Below, in pieces: positions 17,904 through 32,084 of a stretch of DNA of 32,440 nucleotides (position 1 is its first letter; every line of letters begins with the position of its first letter). The notes below the pieces were generated by a model that saw only the letters and a list, made by a program, of their open reading frames with translations, did not search any database and was not told the origin of the DNA. Both the position numbers and the translations under genes were made by a program. Source of the DNA: a virus; IMG/VR virus record IMGVR_UViG_3300006033_000076, positions 1 through 32,440 of that record. One strand, written 5' to 3'.

Positions 17904-20900
17904 ATGTACCTATCTGCCAGCCGCCAATTCGACACTGTTATTGTGTGGGAACAACGCAACTCGAATGGTGTGCACAAGATACGCACATTCGACACACCAT
18001 ATGATTGCTACATCAAGGTTGATGATTGGCGCAGAATTCGGGATACATTAAGGGAGGCAGCTGAAGAAGGGCGAGCAGAACCTGCGCTCAAGTCGTTTGT
18101 TGCTCAGACGCGCGATTGGATCGACACCCGAAATGTCCATCTATCGATGTTTGGTGATGAGTTGTACCGCATTGAGTTTCCAGCTGGAAAACAGTGGCGC
18201 AAGTTCTTGGAATCAGTTCCAAATGACATTCGCTTGTGGGAAACCGATATCCCACCTGAATTGAAAGTGCTTTCGCGAGAATACTACAAAGCTACTGACC
18301 CAACAATCCGCACATCGTTTTACGACATTGAGATCGACTACGACCCAGCTGTGCCGTTTGAGGGGGCAATGAACCCTCAATTTCCTCTAAATTCGATTGC
18401 TTTCTACCATGTTTGGAAAGACGAATACGTTGTGTTTGCTGTCCCACCTCCAACATGGAAGAACACAACGGATCCATATTCAATCCTGGATCCTGATATT
18501 TTCGATGATGTTGCGAGTAAACACACAATCACTCTTTTCAACACTGAGGCTGAGTTGTTGGTTGCCATGGTGGAGGAGATCCAGCAGTGTGACTTGATGT
18601 CAGGATGGAACAGTGCATTGTTTGATGATCCATATATTGCACAACGTGTTGAAATGGTACTCGGTGACGAGTGGTTTCGGATGTTGTCATTTCCTCGCGG
18701 AAAGGCGCCATACTACCGCGAACTTGAGATCATGTTTCGGAAACAGAAGCAGGTCCAGTTCGATGGTCGAATCACAATCGACTACATGGATCTGTTCAAA
18801 AAGTTCACAGTGGAAGATCGAGATAGTTGGAGTTTGGAGAGTGTATCAGCAGACCACTTGGGAGACAAGTTCAAGAAGTTGGACTACGAAGGAACTCTGA
18901 ACGAGCTGTACACGGGAAACTACGCTAAGGCAAATTTATCTGGTGTGGGGGACGATAAGCTAGTGCAATCACGCTTTCGGCTCCAGCAAGTCCAGCAAGA
19001 ATTGGATCGTCGTGGACTTACTGTACCAGCTGATGCGCCATACACAATCTACTTTGACCCAGACTTCGACAACCTCCACCTGTTGGATGAGTTGGAGCTG
19101 TGCGCGTTGCATGAAGCAACTCACCAAGAGGTGGTGAAATACTCATTCAGCAAGTTCGTCCGATACAACATTCGCGACACAGAGGTGCTGGCTGGGTTGG
19201 ACAAGAAGTACAAGTATATTGATCTCGCCAATTGGATGATGCATTACAGCACATGCCAAATGAAGAACGTGTTGGGTACTGTGCGGAAAGCTGAAATGGC
19301 AGTGGCAAATTTCTGCTGGCACGAGCTTGGTCGACGAATTCCTGATACAGTCATGCTCAGTGAGCAGGGTCAAGCTCAAGGTGCATATGTGCTTGTTCCA
19401 CAAGGTGGAATCCAAACAGACCTATTTCTGATCGACATTAATAGCCTGTATCCGTCGTGTATAAAAAGCCTCAATATCTCTCCTGAAAAGTATATCGGGC
19501 AATTTGTTGATACGGAACGTGATCGTCAACAGATCCTTCAGAAGACTGACAAGTACTTGGTGTTTACAACTCACCTGAACGAGAAGGTGACTAAAACTGC
19601 TTGCGAGTGGTATGACTGGTTAGTAGAACACAAGTATGCAATGTCGGGGCATGGGACGGTGTATAACCAAGATTCTCCTGGAATCGTGCCCACGATTTTG
19701 GAATCGTGGCACCTGCGACGAAAAGAAGCGCAGGGGAAGTCGGCAAAAGCTAAACAACGAACGGAAGAGATCCTAAATGGAGCCAAAGCTCGCGTAGGGC
19801 GACAGGAGAGTTCCACAAAGTTGGTGGTTAAGGGGATCAAGCTAACTGATGAAGAATACGCTGAGTACATGGAGTTGTCCGCAGTAGTTGACTATAATGA
19901 TTCACTGTCGTATGCATTCAAAATTCTTCAAAACTCGTACTACGGAGCCCAGCTGAATCAAAACTTCAAGTTCTATGCAAAAGTTGCAGGTGAGAGTACT
20001 ACAGGAACAGGACGTCGAGTTCTGGAACACCAAATTCGAAAAACGTGTGAGCTATTGGATGGAAATTACTGGGTTGACCCAATTGTAGACGAAGAGGATC
20101 CACGTGCTTTACGTGGAGAGGTTGCTAGCCCCTCACTGATTTATGGTGACACTGATTCTGGCATCTTCACTTTGAAGAACATCCTCGTTGGTGACGAGAC
20201 TCAGGCTGAAAAAATCAAAATTGCTGACACTATTGCAGGGTTGGTGAACAAGAGTTTCCCAAAATTCATGATGGAGCAATTCTTGGTTCAGCCAGAGTTC
20301 TCTACCAAAATCAAAACGGGTCGTGAACTTTTCTCACCTGCTGCTTTCTTTGTGTCGAAGAAACGCTATGCAATGCATGTCACAGACAAAGAAGGTATCC
20401 CAAAAAACGACCTCAAGATCATGGGGTTGGATGCGAAAAAGACTACAACGCCTCGAAATGTGCGCAAGTTCCTGCGTCAGTGTGTGATGGATTTGTTGAC
20501 GGGGAAACCAGCCGCCGAGTTGGATGCATACATCATGGAATACCGAGACAACGTAATCGACAATGTCCCCATCATGGATGTTGGGCTCCCAAAAGGCGTC
20601 AAGAAGGTTGAGATGTACACCAAGGAGTTCTACAGCGATCACCGCACACGGCTTCCTGGCCACGTTGCAGCAAGCATTTTTTACAATGAAATGCGGGACG
20701 CAAATGGCGACACACTGTCGCTCCAGATTGTGAGTGGGATGAAGATCAAGGTATTCAATTTTGAGTACGATCTCGAGCATCGAGGTCGGAAGTTCAATTC
20801 AATTGCACTTCCGACAGACACAGAGATCCTCCCTCTGTGGTTTGTGAGAGATTTTGTACCACTCATTGATCGTGTGAAACATTCAAAGAAGTTGGTCGAC

Positions 20901-20990
20901 AACATGTTGCACAACATGTTTGACTCGATCCCCCGTCACGTCCCGACACGACACGTCGAAGCGTTGATGAGTGAGTTTGATTGGGGGTGA
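17904..20990 (+). CDS. Family B DNA polymerase, T4 gp43-like
   Basis: A 1028-residue replicative polymerase with 3'-5' exonuclease. Exonuclease motifs: FYDIEID at about 139-145, GWNSALFDDP near 235, YNIRDTEVL near 420. Polymerase motifs: A, DINSLYPS near 510; B, KILQNSYYG near 672; C, YGDTDS near 746; and KKRY near 819. All catalytic acidic residues are present. It is longer than T4 gp43 (898 residues). The start at ATG 17904 (MYLSASRQFDTVIVWEQ) follows a sigma70-type promoter by about 30 bases and aligns with the beginning of gp43 proteins, although no Shine-Dalgarno motif is seen. The gene sits in the late structural region rather than in a replication cluster, but its host-type promoter is consistent with early expression. 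Confidence 0.96.
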   Translation: MYLSASRQFDTVIVWEQRNSNGVHKIRTFDTPYDCYIKVDDWRRIRDTLREAAEEGRAEPALKSFVAQTRDWIDTRNVHLSMFGDELYRIEFPAGKQWRKFLESVPNDIRLWETDIPPELKVLSREYYKATDPTIRTSFYDIEIDYDPAVPFEGAMNPQFPLNSIAFYHVWKDEYVVFAVPPPTWKNTTDPYSILDPDIFDDVASKHTITLFNTEAELLVAMVEEIQQCDLMSGWNSALFDDPYIAQRVEMVLGDEWFRMLSFPRGKAPYYRELEIMFRKQKQVQFDGRITIDYMDLFKKFTVEDRDSWSLESVSADHLGDKFKKLDYEGTLNELYTGNYAKANLSGVGDDKLVQSRFRLQQVQQELDRRGLTVPADAPYTIYFDPDFDNLHLLDELELCALHEATHQEVVKYSFSKFVRYNIRDTEVLAGLDKKYKYIDLANWMMHYSTCQMKNVLGTVRKAEMAVANFCWHELGRRIPDTVMLSEQGQAQGAYVLVPQGGIQTDLFLIDINSLYPSCIKSLNISPEKYIGQFVDTERDRQQILQKTDKYLVFTTHLNEKVTKTACEWYDWLVEHKYAMSGHGTVYNQDSPGIVPTILESWHLRRKEAQGKSAKAKQRTEEILNGAKARVGRQESSTKLVVKGIKLTDEEYAEYMELSAVVDYNDSLSYAFKILQNSYYGAQLNQNFKFYAKVAGESTTGTGRRVLEHQIRKTCELLDGNYWVDPIVDEEDPRALRGEVASPSLIYGDTDSGIFTLKNILVGDETQAEKIKIADTIAGLVNKSFPKFMMEQFLVQPEFSTKIKTGRELFSPAAFFVSKKRYAMHVTDKEGIPKNDLKIMGLDAKKTTTPRNVRKFLRQCVMDLLTGKPAAELDAYIMEYRDNVIDNVPIMDVGLPKGVKKVEMYTKEFYSDHRTRLPGHVAASIFYNEMRDANGDTLSLQIVSGMKIKVFNFEYDLEHRGRKFNSIALPTDTEILPLWFVRDFVPLIDRVKHSKKLVDNMLHNMFDSIPRHVPTRHVEALMSEFDWG

Positions 20991-21016
20991 TGGAGCTCTA
21001 ATAGAGTGGGGTTGTG

Positions 21017-21045
21017 TTGACAAGTAGTTTTGTGGGGTATATAAT
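21017..21045 (+). promoter_or_regulatory. Perfect consensus sigma70 promoter
   Basis: TTGACA at 21017-21022 and TATAAT at 21040-21045 are separated by exactly 17 bases. The expected start of transcription (about seven bases after the -10) falls on the ATG at 21052. Confidence 0.92.
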
Positions 21046-21051
21046 ACACGC

Positions 21052-22266
21052 ATGACTACTACAACACAAACCCTCACACTGACGATTGCAGATCATCTGT
21101 CTGAACTGTTCTTTGTTCGGATGGATAAGCTGTCAAAGCTCGCCAAGAAATTGGGGGTGGTTGCCCCGTCCTACACCAAGACGGGTAGTGTCCCAATCGA
21201 GAAACGAGTCGATAGCAAGGCGTTTGGTGTACCATCAATGACCATCCGCATTGCTGCATCTCAATACACCGTGGAGTACTCGATCATTCGAGTGGAGGGT
21301 GATCGTACTTTTGTTGGGAAGATCACACACGATGAAGCTGGTACGATGGTGCGAGAAGTCCCTGGCTTCACAATCGATCCGAAGTTTCGGACTCGTCAGC
21401 TCTGTGACCACTGCGATGTTCGACGTTCGCGAAAAACATATGCGATGTTTGACACAGGAACCACACAGATCCAGATTGGCAGCACCTGCGTGAAGGACTA
21501 CATGGGGCACGATGCGTCTGCGCTCATTGGGTGGTTGGATGGAATCGCAGGATTGTCGTCCGATGAGGAGCTGCACGACATAGACGCTGATCGTGTTCCT
21601 CGTGGTATGTTTCTCTGTGATTGGGAGTTGACTCTTGGATCACTGATTCAAGAAGTGAGTCAAAATGGCTTCAAAAGTCGTCGACATGTAGAGGCAAAAG
21701 CGCTAACCAACCCTGGCCTCACCACAACTGCTGAAGATATCTCTGAATTGCTTGGTGCGCACTACTCCACGGTCCCACATCAGCACCAGCAGTTGAATGT
21801 TGGGGCGCAGTATATCGATCAAATCCCTCAGTTTATTGATTGGGTTGCTGCACAAGACAGCACCAGTGCTTTCTGGTTCAATGTTCAGGGAATCGTCAAC
21901 TTCCGTCACGGAGTTCCGTTTCGCAGTTTGTCGTCCCTTGCAGCTGGAGTTGGGATGTGGTTCGCTTCCAAGGTCCAGCGAGACACCCAGCCGACACAAT
22001 CCACCTTTCTTGGAAGCGTTGGAGAGAAACTCCATGTTGAGCTGAGTGTGGTTCGGAAGCATGTGTTCTCGACTCAGTTTGGGCGAAAGACGATGTTGGT
22101 TTCTCGCGATGGTGTTGGCAATAGTATTCTCCTTGAAGCAAACACAACATTGTTTGATGAAATTGACGCTGGTGCGAAGCTCACTGTGTCTGGAACTGTC
22201 AAAAAGCATGACGTGTACAAAGACATCCAGCAGACGGTGTTGAATCGCTGTAAACTCTGGAAATGA
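21052..22266 (+). CDS. Putative nucleic-acid-binding phage protein with zinc knuckle and OB-like C-terminus
   Basis: A 404-residue protein of a type seen in large phages and plasmids but without an assigned function. Residues about 117-150 carry LCDHCDVRRSRKTYAMF and GSTCVKDYMG, a C-x2-C ... C cluster that may bind zinc. The last 90 residues (GSVGEKLHVELSVVRKHVF, GNSILLEANTTLF, LTVSGTVKKHDVYKDIQQTV) look like an OB-fold strand set. Expression is driven by a perfect sigma70 promoter, so it is an early gene. ATG 21052 coincides with the predicted transcript start and has no ribosome site; ATG 21121 (MDKLSKLAKKLG) is an alternative, also without one. Confidence 0.7.
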   Translation: MTTTTQTLTLTIADHLSELFFVRMDKLSKLAKKLGVVAPSYTKTGSVPIEKRVDSKAFGVPSMTIRIAASQYTVEYSIIRVEGDRTFVGKITHDEAGTMVREVPGFTIDPKFRTRQLCDHCDVRRSRKTYAMFDTGTTQIQIGSTCVKDYMGHDASALIGWLDGIAGLSSDEELHDIDADRVPRGMFLCDWELTLGSLIQEVSQNGFKSRRHVEAKALTNPGLTTTAEDISELLGAHYSTVPHQHQQLNVGAQYIDQIPQFIDWVAAQDSTSAFWFNVQGIVNFRHGVPFRSLSSLAAGVGMWFASKVQRDTQPTQSTFLGSVGEKLHVELSVVRKHVFSTQFGRKTMLVSRDGVGNSILLEANTTLFDEIDAGAKLTVSGTVKKHDVYKDIQQTVLNRCKLWK

Positions 22267-22299: not shown

Positions 22300-22791
22300 G
22301 TGCCACGAATGCAGTTTGATCACACCACTGAGACTATCACACCGGATTTAACCAACATCCTCACAGTTGGTGGGTCTGGTGCCATCGAGTTGCCGAGTGG
22401 TCCTTCGCAAGCTCGTCCACTGAACCCCATCCCAGGTGCACTTCGGTTTAACTCGTCGTTCGACCAGCTAGAGTTCTACGTTGATGGTGAGTGGGTATTG
22501 GTCCCTCAGGCCACATCGATTTCCAACGGGACAGTAGCCACGACTGTCGCCAACTATTCTGTGGGTGAGACGGAGTCTGTTGTACTGGCTGGGAATGCAC
22601 TCACAGTCACACTTCCACAACCAAGCACGTCCACCAATCGTGAGATTTCCATCAAGCGGATAGGAAACGCAGGTCCAGTGTTGGTGACTTCGCTGAGTGG
22701 TGCAATTGATGGTCAGTCCACGATCAGTCTAGCGACGAAATACACGTCGATCACGGTGGCGTCAGATGGCACAAACTGGTGGATCATTTAA
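22300..22791 (+). CDS. Probable virion surface protein, 163 aa
   Basis: Not assigned to a family. It is beta-rich and Ser/Thr-rich; residues about 42-66 (PGALRFNSSFDQLEFYVDGE) resemble the short strand repeats typical of phage tail fibres and the repeats of the neck protein at 7869. The end (SITVASDGTNWWII) is that of many tail-associated proteins. It starts at GTG 22300 or ATG 22309; neither has a clear Shine-Dalgarno motif. It is followed 18 bases later by another structural-type gene. Confidence 0.6.
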   Translation: MPRMQFDHTTETITPDLTNILTVGGSGAIELPSGPSQARPLNPIPGALRFNSSFDQLEFYVDGEWVLVPQATSISNGTVATTVANYSVGETESVVLAGNALTVTLPQPSTSTNREISIKRIGNAGPVLVTSLSGAIDGQSTISLATKYTSITVASDGTNWWII

Positions 22792-28852: not shown

Positions 28853-29320
28853 ATGAAGTACTCAGCAATCCCCACTCGCAGCGCGATTGTTGCAGCAGCT
28901 GCTGCTCTCTGCGTTGGCTGTGTCGACAACACTCCTGATTTCTACACAGAACAACAAGTTCGACCAATCCAGCGTGGTGAGTACCGCTCGATGGACGATT
29001 GCCGCAAAGACTGGCATGATTCCCTCTGCGAGCGACCACCAGCTGGCGCGAGTGGACATGCCCACCCTGTTGTTGGACCATACTTCTTCAACTCTGGATC
29101 AGCTTCGCACGTGATCACCCCTGCTGGCACCGTCCAGCCGTTCACTCACAATGTTGCCAATGCTGCAAACACGACAACTGCCTCTCGTACGGTAGCCTCT
29201 GTGTACAACACTCCTGGAAACTACTCTGCTGGCCAGTCACGGTTTGCAGCCACTCGAGCAGCTGCTGTATCTCGTGGTGGGATGGCGTCGTCGCGTGGTG
29301 GCTCGTCATCTGGTGGGTGA
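28853..29320 (+). CDS. YgiB-like (DUF1190) lipoprotein
   Basis: A 155-residue lipoprotein. The signal sequence ends AAALCVGC (lipobox, Cys23). Similarity to E. coli YgiB is seen in the paired short segments YRSMDDCRKDWHDSLCE (YgiB has YATREDCVAEFGEGQCQ), the HPVVGPYFF block and the Ser/Gly/Arg-rich end (VSRGGMASSRGG). The rest is low-complexity Thr/Ala/Ser. YgiB-type proteins are envelope proteins of unknown function found next to YgiC-type ligases. Here the order is ligase then lipoprotein, six bases apart, on one transcript. Confidence 0.78.
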   Translation: MKYSAIPTRSAIVAAAAALCVGCVDNTPDFYTEQQVRPIQRGEYRSMDDCRKDWHDSLCERPPAGASGHAHPVVGPYFFNSGSASHVITPAGTVQPFTHNVANAANTTTASRTVASVYNTPGNYSAGQSRFAATRAAAVSRGGMASSRGGSSSGG

Positions 29321-29357
29321 TGTGGAGCAGTCCACGTCAAGTTGTTGCTAGTTACGG

Positions 29358-29385
29358 TTGATGATTTGCATTTCTCGGCTATAAT
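29358..29385 (+). promoter_or_regulatory. Sigma70-like promoter of the YqeY-like gene and tRNA island
   Basis: TTGATG at 29358-29363 and a perfect TATAAT at 29380-29385 are 16 bases apart. The transcript would start near 29392, about 20 bases before ATG 29412, with GGAG in the leader. Confidence 0.75.
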
Positions 29386-29411: not shown

Positions 29412-29855
29412 ATGTCCATCTACGAAAAAATCAAAGCCGACACACTGGCGGCACGACTCGCAAATCGTGTGAGTCCGAACCCTGTCTTGGTTGATCTCTT
29501 GGTTACACTGAAGAGTGACCTCGACATGATCGCCAAGACAACAAACGCCGCCCCAACCGACGAGAGTTGCGTTGCAACGATCCGCAAATTCTTGAAAGGG
29601 AACCAACTGGTGTTGAACGCTGCTCCAGATAATGCTCGGGGGTTGGCTGAAAAGTCGATCCTGGAGGGGTATCTCCCCACACAGTTGACGGAAGCGGAGT
29701 TGGAGGCGATCCTCGATGGGTACGCCAAGGACATGGGGAGCCCACTGAAGGTGGGTGCACTGTTGGGCAAGCTCGCTGGTGAACACGCGTCACGCTACGA
29801 CGGCAAGTTGGCGTCGCAAGTTGCGAATCGGATCATTCAAGCGCGGGCTGCCTAA
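29412..29855 (+). CDS. GatB/YqeY-domain protein
   Basis: A 147-residue protein of the YqeY family. The best part is the C-terminal half: EKSILEGYLPTQLTEAELEA, GSPLKVGALLGKLAGEHASR and YDGKLASQVANRII, which match the tail domain shared by YqeY and the GatB subunit of tRNA-dependent amidotransferase. In GatB this domain grips the tRNA; in YqeY it is free-standing with unknown role. The N-terminal helices are less conserved. The gene has a sigma70-type promoter and a GGAG ribosome site, and is followed 10 bases later by a tRNA gene, a CCA-adding enzyme and tRNA-Gln, so a tRNA-related role is likely. Confidence 0.88.
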   Translation: MSIYEKIKADTLAARLANRVSPNPVLVDLLVTLKSDLDMIAKTTNAAPTDESCVATIRKFLKGNQLVLNAAPDNARGLAEKSILEGYLPTQLTEAELEAILDGYAKDMGSPLKVGALLGKLAGEHASRYDGKLASQVANRIIQARAA

Positions 29856-29977: not shown

Positions 29978-31018
29978 ATGTACATAATGCAGACGTTTCT
30001 CGTTGGTGGTGCTGTTCGTGACAGACTGCTGAACCGCCCCAGCAATGACAACGACTATGTTGTTGTTGGTTCCACAGTTGATGAAATGCTTCGACTTGGA
30101 TTCACCCAAGTTGGGGACCACTTCCCAGTATTCCTTCACCCCAAAACAGGCGAAGAATACGCGCTTGCACGAACTGAGCGGAAAGTTGCTCCTGGACACA
30201 CTGGATTTGAGGTGTTGTTTGATCCTTCAGTCACGCTTGACGAGGACCTGTCGCGTCGAGATTTCACGATCAACGCAATGGCGTATGAGGAGTCCACCAA
30301 CACGCTGTTCGACCCATTTGGTGGTCAACAAGACTTGGAGGCAAAAGTCATCCGCCACGTTGGTGATGCGTTTGGTGATGATCCGCTCCGTGTTCTCCGT
30401 GCGCTCCGATTCGCATCCAGGTTTGAATTCCAGATCCACCACACCACATCCGCGCTGATCAAGCAGGTTGCTCCATCCCTCGTTGAGTTGTCGCCCCAGC
30501 GTGTTGTGAATGAACTCATACTTGGGGCACTTCAAGCAGCTGCTCCGCACCACTACGTGGAGTTGTTGTCGCGATACAACGTCCATCGCTACATGCCTCC
30601 CGAACTTCGGGGATTCTTGATCCCAACTGTGGGAAAGCTATTGGTGCAGCAGCACAGCAACCCCTTATGGGTGTTGGCACAAGTGATTGACCCTGAACGC
30701 GTCAAGTATTCTGCGGTGCCTCGTAACCTTGCATCGATTGTGAAGCAAGTTTGGGCCATAGCACGATGGGATCGTCGGGATCCGTACGACACTGTGGATG
30801 TTGTGACGCATCTGGGGTTACACAAACACGCTCATTTGGTTGATTCGGATGCTGCTCAGTTCGCGATCGCGGCCGACAAACGTGCTTTGTTGGGGTACGG
30901 AACAATCTGTCGTGACATTGAGATCCCCCGATCTCCTGATATTGGGGCCGCAATTCGAGCACTTCGAGTTGAGAGAGTGTCTGATGTGATGCAAAGAATC
31001 GGTGTGTTGGAAGCATAA
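29978..31018 (+). CDS. cca: CCA-adding tRNA nucleotidyltransferase
   Basis: A 346-residue class II nucleotidyltransferase close in its first 230 residues to bacterial Cca. The visible motifs are LVGGAVRD at residues 8-15, the metal-binding pair DND (Asp24 and Asp26), VVVGSTVDEML, EYALARTERK, LSRRDFTINAMAY, DPLRVLRALRFASRF and ELSPQRVVNEL. The C-terminal HD phosphohydrolase domain of E. coli Cca (HDLGKG) is absent and the protein is about 65 residues shorter. It adds or restores the 3' CCA of tRNAs. Both phage tRNAs already encode CCA, so repair is the likely need. ATG 29978 has AGG nine bases upstream; ATG 29987 (MQTFLVGG) is an alternative. Frames from 29906 overlap the tRNA and are not used. 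Confidence 0.95.
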   Translation: MYIMQTFLVGGAVRDRLLNRPSNDNDYVVVGSTVDEMLRLGFTQVGDHFPVFLHPKTGEEYALARTERKVAPGHTGFEVLFDPSVTLDEDLSRRDFTINAMAYEESTNTLFDPFGGQQDLEAKVIRHVGDAFGDDPLRVLRALRFASRFEFQIHHTTSALIKQVAPSLVELSPQRVVNELILGALQAAAPHHYVELLSRYNVHRYMPPELRGFLIPTVGKLLVQQHSNPLWVLAQVIDPERVKYSAVPRNLASIVKQVWAIARWDRRDPYDTVDVVTHLGLHKHAHLVDSDAAQFAIAADKRALLGYGTICRDIEIPRSPDIGAAIRALRVERVSDVMQRIGVLEA

Positions 31019-31023
31019 TCGAG

Positions 31024-31053
31024 TTGCCTCACACAATCAGACGCATATATAAT
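31024..31053 (+). promoter_or_regulatory. Sigma70-like promoter of tRNA-Gln
   Basis: TTGCCT at 31024-31029 and a perfect TATAAT at 31048-31053 are 18 bases apart, ending 11 bases before the mature tRNA 5' end. It would also drive the structured RNA downstream. Confidence 0.65.
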
Positions 31054-31064
31054 TGTTTGCATGC

Positions 31065-31140
31065 AGGGGTGTAGCTTAGTTGGTAGAGCACCAGATTTTG
31101 ATTCTGGGTGTCGGTGGTTCGATTCCATCCACCCCTGCCA
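31065..31140 (+). tRNA. tRNA-Gln (anticodon UUG)
   Basis: A 76-base tRNA. Acceptor AGGGGTG pairs with CACCCCT, discriminator G, encoded CCA. The anticodon stem CCAGA/TCTGG closes TTTTGAT with TTG at 31098-31100. The T arm is GGTGG-TTCGATT-CCATC. UUG reads glutamine CAA and CAG. Confidence 0.95.
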
Positions 31141-31299
31141 TAGAACGTGTGAAGACCACAACAGTCAGTGGACTGTTGAAAACTGCAAGTGTCCTGGTCG
31201 GAATCCTTGCTCGAATGGGCAACCGACCTTGATCAGCGGCGACTCCGCGGAAGCAGGCCCCTTGAAATAATCGTCCCCAATTGGTCTCCACGAGAGACC

Positions 31300-31346
31300 T
31301 GTTGGGAGAGTGAGCTACGAGTGTGAATCAGCTCACTCTCCCAACA
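31300..31346 (+). repeat. Perfect 17-pair inverted repeat
   Basis: TGTTGGGAGAGTGAGCT at 31300-31316 pairs exactly with AGCTCACTCTCCCAACA at 31330-31346 around a 13-base loop. Neither strand has a T tract after it, so it is not a plain terminator. It is the strongest hairpin in the window. Confidence 0.9.
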
Positions 31347-31357
31347 ATAGGGTCAGA

Positions 31358-31491
31358 TGAGGTGGTGGTTCCGCCACACGGTGCGCAGTGAAATACCCCA
31401 AGGCCAGGAGGGTGAGCAATCACTCTCGACTGTGGATAGCCCGAATCTGCGACTTATCGGGGCGTTGGTAGAAGCCCGAGCCGCCACCTCA
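31358..31491 (+). ncRNA. Compact 134-base RNA domain with GNRA hairpin and possible pseudoknot
   Basis: Closed by TGAGGTGGTGG (31358-31368) with CCGCCACCTCA (31481-31491), ten Watson-Crick pairs and one G-U. Inside are CCACA (31374-31378) with TGTGG (31431-31435); a hairpin GAGGGTGA-GCAA-TCACTCTC (31408-31427) capped by a GNRA tetraloop; GCCCGA (31439-31444) with TCGGGGC (31457-31463); and CGCAG (31384-31388) with CTGCG (31447-31451) as a possible pseudoknot. GCCCGA occurs again at 31474-31479 and can pair with the same TCGGGGC, so two exclusive folds exist. Confidence 0.55.
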
Positions 31492-31523
31492 ATTTACCTT
31501 CCCCACTCCTGCTCCCAAGTAAC

Positions 31524-32084
31524 ATGACCCGACAACTTTCCGACAATGAAATTCGCGACATTATGTTAGCGAATGGGTTTACCATCAAAGACGGCTTGAC
31601 TGATCTCAAGCCGTATGTGTACGACGCAGCGAGAGCACTGCTGTCAGCTGCTTCAGATCCTCGACCCGTCAATCAACGAGACACAGGGTTGTATCCCAAG
31701 TACGCAGTTAACCGTTTGGATGGACGAGATCGTCCAGGCGAAGATCGAGCTGATGCGATGTACTTTGTGCTCGACTTGGTGTATGATGATTATGCACCAA
31801 CTGCGATGGCCGCATACGCGTCTGCGATTGATGTGGAGCGGTACCCCAAATTTGCTGCTCAGATGCGACAGCTGTACCCTCTGGCCAACACGAGCATCGG
31901 AGCAGTGCTCACTGCCGCCATTGACGCAATAGAGACGTCCACCAATGGACTCAAGTGGTACAATGACATGTATCCTGTTGCGCAGTCGTCGGTTGATGAT
32001 GAAATTATTGCAACAAATGACTCTGTGATTCAACAACTGCAGTTGCTTGTTAACCCACCCATACACAAAGAGGACCTGGCATGA
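31524..32084 (+). CDS. Phage protein of unknown function, 186 aa
   Basis: Function not recognised. The first 40 residues (LSDNEIRDIMLANGFTIKDG, LTDLKPYVYDAARALL) form an N-terminal motif that recurs in unrelated phage proteins. Residues about 54-115 (DTGLYPKYAVNRLDGRDRPG, DAMYFVLDLVYDDYAPTAMA, AYASAID) resemble a second small phage domain (KY.V.R.DG ... YFVLD). So it appears to be a fusion of two short phage-specific modules with a helical tail. It has no signal peptide. There is no clear ribosome site before ATG 31524. It is coupled to the next gene by a four-base overlap (ATGA). Confidence 0.72.
   Translation: MTRQLSDNEIRDIMLANGFTIKDGLTDLKPYVYDAARALLSAASDPRPVNQRDTGLYPKYAVNRLDGRDRPGEDRADAMYFVLDLVYDDYAPTAMAAYASAIDVERYPKFAAQMRQLYPLANTSIGAVLTAAIDAIETSTNGLKWYNDMYPVAQSSVDDEIIATNDSVIQQLQLLVNPPIHKEDLA

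What the first reader, a model, noticed from the sequence alone, without database searches (positions are those of the whole stretch)
31141..31523. Candidate large structured RNA after the phage tRNA-Gln
About 380 bases without a gene contain at least five long helices in a row on one strand, including a perfect 17-pair hairpin and a GNRA-capped hairpin inside a domain closed by an 11-pair helix. It follows a tRNA and a CCA-adding enzyme gene. Such density of helices in an otherwise tightly packed phage genome is hard to explain except as a functional RNA. T4 makes stable RNAs C and D of unknown role from its tRNA cluster, and GOLLD RNAs lie near phage tRNAs, so precedent exists. I do not recognise the class.
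Basis: partly seen in the sequence, partly recalled or inferred. Interest (0 to 1): 0.85.

Follow-up and report, generated by a model that had tools for sequence, protein, structure and literature searches.

The report
Orphan hairpin-rich RNA candidate beside phage tRNA
A 383-base stretch without genes, just after a tRNA gene in a giant bacterial virus, can fold into an RNA with one very strong hairpin and several weaker helices, but no relative of it could be found anywhere, so whether it is a working RNA remains untested.

Summary
The window is a 32.4-kb fragment of a jumbo myovirus related to Xanthomonas phage XacN1. Region 31141-31523 has no coding signal, is GC-richer than most of the window, and lies behind tRNA-Gln, which has a sigma70-like promoter (TTGCCT-18-TATAAT).
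The described helices are there. The perfect 17-pair hairpin (31300-31346) is well beyond chance: 0 of 1,500 shuffles, and the longest perfect hairpin in the window. The rest is weaker. Whole-region z is -4.6 (plus strand), but falls to -2.5 without that hairpin. The 5' third (-0.6) is not above chance. A 14-pair closing helix arises in 2.6% of shuffles, and a coding stretch folds even better relative to its shuffles. The 3' domain is strand-specific (z -3.0 plus, -0.1 minus), as expected of an RNA.
Rfam (E<=10), DNA similarity searches of phage and plasmid records, a covariance model of the 3' domain on 49 phage records, and pattern scans found no homologue. Fifteen apparent model matches were a selection artefact inside a coding gene. 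Covariation therefore could not be tested. It is not shown to be GOLLD or ROOL.
Best guess: a processed, structured non-coding RNA from a tRNA-Gln co-transcript (0.42); rivals are a lone processing hairpin and an mRNA leader.

The parts
31024..31053 (+). sigma70-like promoter TTGCCT-18 nt-TATAAT, about 12 nt before the tRNA
   Evidence: consensus scan, 10 of 12 matches; such matches are not rare in shuffles (mean 3.4 at the 9-of-12 threshold)
31065..31140 (+). tRNA-Gln (TTG)
   Evidence: ARAGORN; Rfam RF00005, 69.3 bits
31159..31178 (+). hairpin a, 8 pairs, loop AGUG
   Evidence: pair probabilities 0.89-0.98
31191..31233 (+). hairpin b, GGUCGG...CCGACC carrying an inner stem UUGCUC/GGGCAA
   Evidence: pair probabilities 0.62-0.99
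31249..31516 (+). 3' part closed by a long-range helix 31249-31257/31508-31516, ending 7 nt before the next ATG
   Evidence: pair probabilities 0.50-0.99
31283..31299 (+). hairpin d, GGUCUC CACGA GAGACC, directly next to hairpin e
   Evidence: pair probability about 1.0
31300..31346 (+). hairpin e, perfect 17 pairs, 13-nt loop
   Evidence: 0 of 1,500 shuffles; longest perfect hairpin of the window; no U tract behind it, and not among the terminator-like sites
31349..31500 (+). 3' domain: extended closing helix with 14 continuous pairs at 31358-31371/31478-31491
   Evidence: piece 31359-31490 has z -3.0 on the plus strand and -0.1 on the minus strand
31408..31427 (+). 8-pair hairpin with GCAA (GNRA) tetraloop
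   Evidence: pair probability 0.95-1.0
31524..32084 (+). downstream gene, 186 aa, weak match to phrog_9572; no Shine-Dalgarno sequence

Best explanation
A structured non-coding RNA co-transcribed with tRNA-Gln. Inferred steps: a sigma70-type promoter at 31024-31053 starts a transcript close to the tRNA; processing at the tRNA 3' end releases an RNA of about 375 nt starting near 31141; this folds into small 5' hairpins plus a 3' part (31249-31516) closed by a long-range helix, whose stable hairpins protect it and present loops to a partner. It would accumulate during infection like other RNAs encoded beside phage tRNAs. Shown: no coding signal, hairpin e beyond chance, strand-specific folding of the 3' domain, promoter-like sequence. 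Not shown: transcription, processing, conservation, partner or function.
For: No coding signal. GC 55% against a window mean of 50% (only 5% of windows as high). Fold z -4.6 on the plus strand against -3.2 on the minus strand; domain z -3.0 plus against -0.1 minus. Hairpin e 0 of 1,500. Promoter-like site with a perfect TATAAT just before the tRNA. Precedent: GOLLD and ROOL RNAs are encoded in phages and prophages, often near tRNA islands (PMC12286853).
Against: No homologue in Rfam, the phage and plasmid collections, 49 phage records searched with a covariance model, or pattern scans of IMG/VR and GTDB contigs. The signal is dominated by one hairpin. Mostly coding pieces of the window reach similar z. 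No intrinsic terminator found behind the region. The predicted structure ends only 7 nt before the next start codon, leaving little room for a separate 3' end.
Confidence: 0.42

Rival explanations
1. Only the 17-pair hairpin, perhaps with hairpin d beside it, is functional: a processing or stabilising signal, for example an RNase III site, separating the tRNA-Gln precursor from the mRNA of 31524-32084, inside an otherwise unconstrained spacer. A DNA-level role of the inverted repeat, such as a protein-binding site, is a variant of this.
For: Hairpin e carries most of the excess stability: z falls from -4.6 to -2.5 without it and to -1.8 without it and hairpin d. It is the only element far outside chance. 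It lacks a U tract, so it does not look like an intrinsic terminator.
Against: The 3' domain keeps z -3.0 on one strand only, and the gap is about 380 nt, more than a processing signal needs.
Confidence: 0.26
2. A structured 5' leader of the gene at 31524 that controls its translation: the closing helix 31249-31257/31508-31516 occupies bases -16 to -8 before the ATG.
For: Position of the 3' strand of the closing helix; no Shine-Dalgarno sequence before 31524; same strand, with no terminator between.
Against: Other genes of the window also lack a Shine-Dalgarno sequence (3274, 12524, 27220, 28853). The genes with matches in JWF, JWAlpha and BcepF1 follow other genes directly, without a long leader.
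Confidence: 0.18
3. No RNA function: remains of a decayed gene or insert behind the tRNA, with helices by chance.
For: No homologue and no conserved synteny: none of the window proteins after DNA polymerase, except a short match of 22300-22791, is found in the fetched parts of the near relatives. Mostly coding pieces can fold as well.
Against: A 17-pair perfect hairpin is not expected by chance; GC is high, whereas intergenic phage DNA is usually GC-poor (general knowledge); no gene relic was recognised.
Confidence: 0.14

Closest known systems
GOLLD RNA (RF01998)
   Same: Encoded in phages and prophages, often near tRNA islands; one studied member lies downstream of a tRNA gene (PMC12286853)
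   Different: Many members exceed 800 nt; here about 380 nt and no match to any Rfam model
ROOL RNA (RF03087)
   Same: Large structured phage and prophage RNA near tRNA islands (PMC12286853)
   Different: No Rfam match; about 580 nt (general knowledge) against about 380 nt; pseudoknots and cage formation not testable here
Phage T4 RNA C and RNA D
   Same: Non-tRNA RNAs made from a phage tRNA cluster
   Different: Sequences not compared; no relation shown

Membership tests
GOLLD RNA | Match to the Rfam covariance model | tested here: not met
   No GOLLD match at gathering score over the whole window, nor among all matches with E up to 10 on 31000-31600
GOLLD RNA | Length, many members above 800 nt | tested here: not met
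   The gap between tRNA-Gln and the next gene is 383 nt
GOLLD RNA | Location near phage tRNA genes | tested here: met
   Directly behind tRNA-Gln
ROOL RNA | Match to the Rfam covariance model | tested here: not met
ROOL RNA | Homo-oligomeric cage | not testable with these tools
   Needs cryo-EM
tRNA, tmRNA or interrupted tRNA | Cloverleaf with or without an intron, or tmRNA | tested here: not met
   ARAGORN without introns and with introns up to 1 kb at normal thresholds finds no tRNA or tmRNA inside 31141-31523
Self-splicing intron, ribozyme or riboswitch held in Rfam | Match to any Rfam model | tested here: not met
   Only the tRNA and chance-level matches at E up to 10
Conserved structured RNA class | Compensatory base changes in homologues | tested here: inconclusive
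   No homologues found, so the test could not be made

The most novel reading that the evidence does not exclude
An undescribed class of structured non-coding RNA, smaller than GOLLD and ROOL, made from a tRNA co-transcript by jumbo phages of the wider XacN1 group, with its own fold and a trans-acting role in infection.
Probability: 0.25. Interest if true: 0.6.

Novelty: new variant of a known kind. Interest (0 to 1): 0.3.

Why it matters
If it is real, it adds a third, smaller kind of structured RNA to GOLLD and ROOL in phage tRNA regions, and a 383-nt orphan is easier to make and test than RNAs of 600-900 nt. At present it is a single sequence without relatives, so its value is as a candidate for transcript mapping.

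Tried and rejected
(1) Pattern AGTGAAATACCCCAAG in IMG/VR gave 15 loci scoring 21-29 bits with the covariance model. In the three loci read the match lies inside one conserved 212-aa gene and the score rests on the 16 bases used to select them: rejected as homologues. (2) The same core as a 17-mer in GTDB genomes: 19 loci, no alignment beyond the pattern. (3) Patterns GAGGTGGNGGTTCNGCC and CTTGAAATAATCGTCC: no extended similarity. (4) Relatives through the CCA enzyme, major capsid protein and glutathionylspermidine synthase-like gene: no contig shares this locus. (5) Interrupted tRNA in the region: none at normal thresholds. (6) Model without speed filters on three relative tRNA-array loci: best E 0.65, i.e. 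noise. (7) A D-loop-like 9-mer shared with tRNA-Gln (31464-31472) is expected by chance in 600 bases.

Full report
What the window is. G000 is a 32,440-base virus record. The protein at 106-1425 is a T4-type major head protein (phrog_138), 55% identical to that of Xanthomonas phage XacN1 (384 kb) and 54% to those of Stenotrophomonas phages CM1 and RAS14. With a tail sheath, DNA polymerase and PhoH gene, this is a fragment of a jumbo myovirus. The nearest contigs have a major capsid protein 76-100% identical and share gene order from capsid to tail sheath or DNA polymerase, but none of the window proteins after the polymerase, except a short match of 22300-22791, is found in their fetched parts. 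The 3' end of the window holds a YqeY-like gene, tRNA-Leu (TAG), a CCA-adding enzyme gene, tRNA-Gln (TTG), the region in question and a 186-aa gene.

Is the observation right? The gap 31141-31523 has no coding signal in any frame, and GC is 55% against 50%. Full-region minimum free energy is -151.4 kcal/mol, z -4.6 on the plus strand and -3.2 on the minus strand. The perfect 17-pair hairpin 31300-31346 is the longest perfect hairpin in the window and was never reached in 1,500 dinucleotide shuffles. The tetraloop hairpin 31408-31427 (GCAA) and the closing helix are there; the closing helix is 14 pairs with G-U. A further long-range helix, 31249-31257/31508-31516, has pair probabilities up to 0.99.

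How much is beyond chance? Removing the 17-pair hairpin brings z to -2.5, removing hairpin d as well to -1.8, and the 5' third alone scores -0.6. A closing helix of at least 14 pairs is found in 39 of 1,500 shuffles, and longer ones occur elsewhere in the window. In tilings of the window, mostly coding pieces score as well or better (29441-29590; 20800-21182). The best independent sign of an RNA is strand asymmetry: the 3' domain 31359-31490 has z -3.0 on the plus strand and -0.1 on the minus strand. Several helices inside that domain are uncertain (probability 0.2-0.3).

Is it known, and does it have relatives? No Rfam family matches, even at E up to 10, except the tRNA and chance-level hits. 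Blastn of the region against 50,697 phage records and 72,556 plasmids finds nothing credible. Forty-eight jumbo-phage records searched by DNA and 49 records searched with a covariance model of the 3' domain (R1, from this one sequence) give nothing, nor do 69 loci around glutathionylspermidine synthase-like genes or three relative loci with tRNA arrays searched without filters. R1 was built from one sequence, so distant homologues may be missed; the search tool itself warned that an empty answer without a known positive shows little. A pattern scan gave 15 loci with apparent full-length model matches; the loci read show these inside a conserved 212-aa gene, so they are artefacts of selecting by 16 bases of the model. 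GTDB genomes gave only chance matches. Covariation, the decisive test, could therefore not be made.

How it might work. A promoter-like sequence TTGCCT-18-TATAAT at 31024-31053 lies about 12 nt before the tRNA, so tRNA-Gln and the region are plausibly one transcript; tRNA 3' processing would free an RNA starting near 31141. No intrinsic terminator is seen behind the region, and the closing helix ends 7 nt before the ATG at 31524. The main reading is a processed structured RNA (0.42). The rivals are a lone processing hairpin (0.26), a translational leader of 31524 (0.18; the genes with matches in JWF, JWAlpha and BcepF1 follow other genes directly, and missing Shine-Dalgarno sequences are common in this window), and no function (0.14).

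Comparison with known systems. GOLLD and ROOL are encoded in phages and prophages near tRNA islands, and at least one GOLLD lies downstream of a tRNA gene (PMC12286853). Position is shared; sequence model and size are not. Membership is not met. The candidate resembles that kind by position and predicted fold only.

Verdict. Observation partly confirmed; interpretation cannot be decided. A reasonable candidate for transcript mapping, at present a single orphan sequence.

Noticed in passing
L214:1279-1426 (contig IMGVR_UViG_3300021137_000006): In a relative with 84% identical capsid protein, a tRNA-Thr(TGT) gene carries a 73-nt insert in the anticodon loop, beside an uninterrupted tRNA-Thr(TGT). 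It is found only when introns are allowed; too small for a usual group I intron.
   Followed up: partly
L213:18144-18302: Two further tRNA-Phe-like genes (GAA) in the same array appear only at lowered ARAGORN thresholds; the second matches the Rfam tRNA model (L213:18227-18299).
   Followed up: partly
window 29318-29385: Terminator-like stem followed by a promoter-like TTGATG-16-TATAAT before the YqeY-like gene and tRNA-Leu: possibly the start of the translation-related unit.
   Followed up: no
window 20800-21182 and 29441-29590: Mostly coding pieces with fold z below -5.5 on the plus strand, stronger than the candidate RNA; unexplained.
   Followed up: no
window 31307-31340 and 31408-31427: The stems of the 17-pair hairpin and of the GCAA hairpin share sequence (GAGAGTGAGC and GAGGGTGAGC; CACTCTC in both 3' arms), so the arms could exchange partners.
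   Followed up: no
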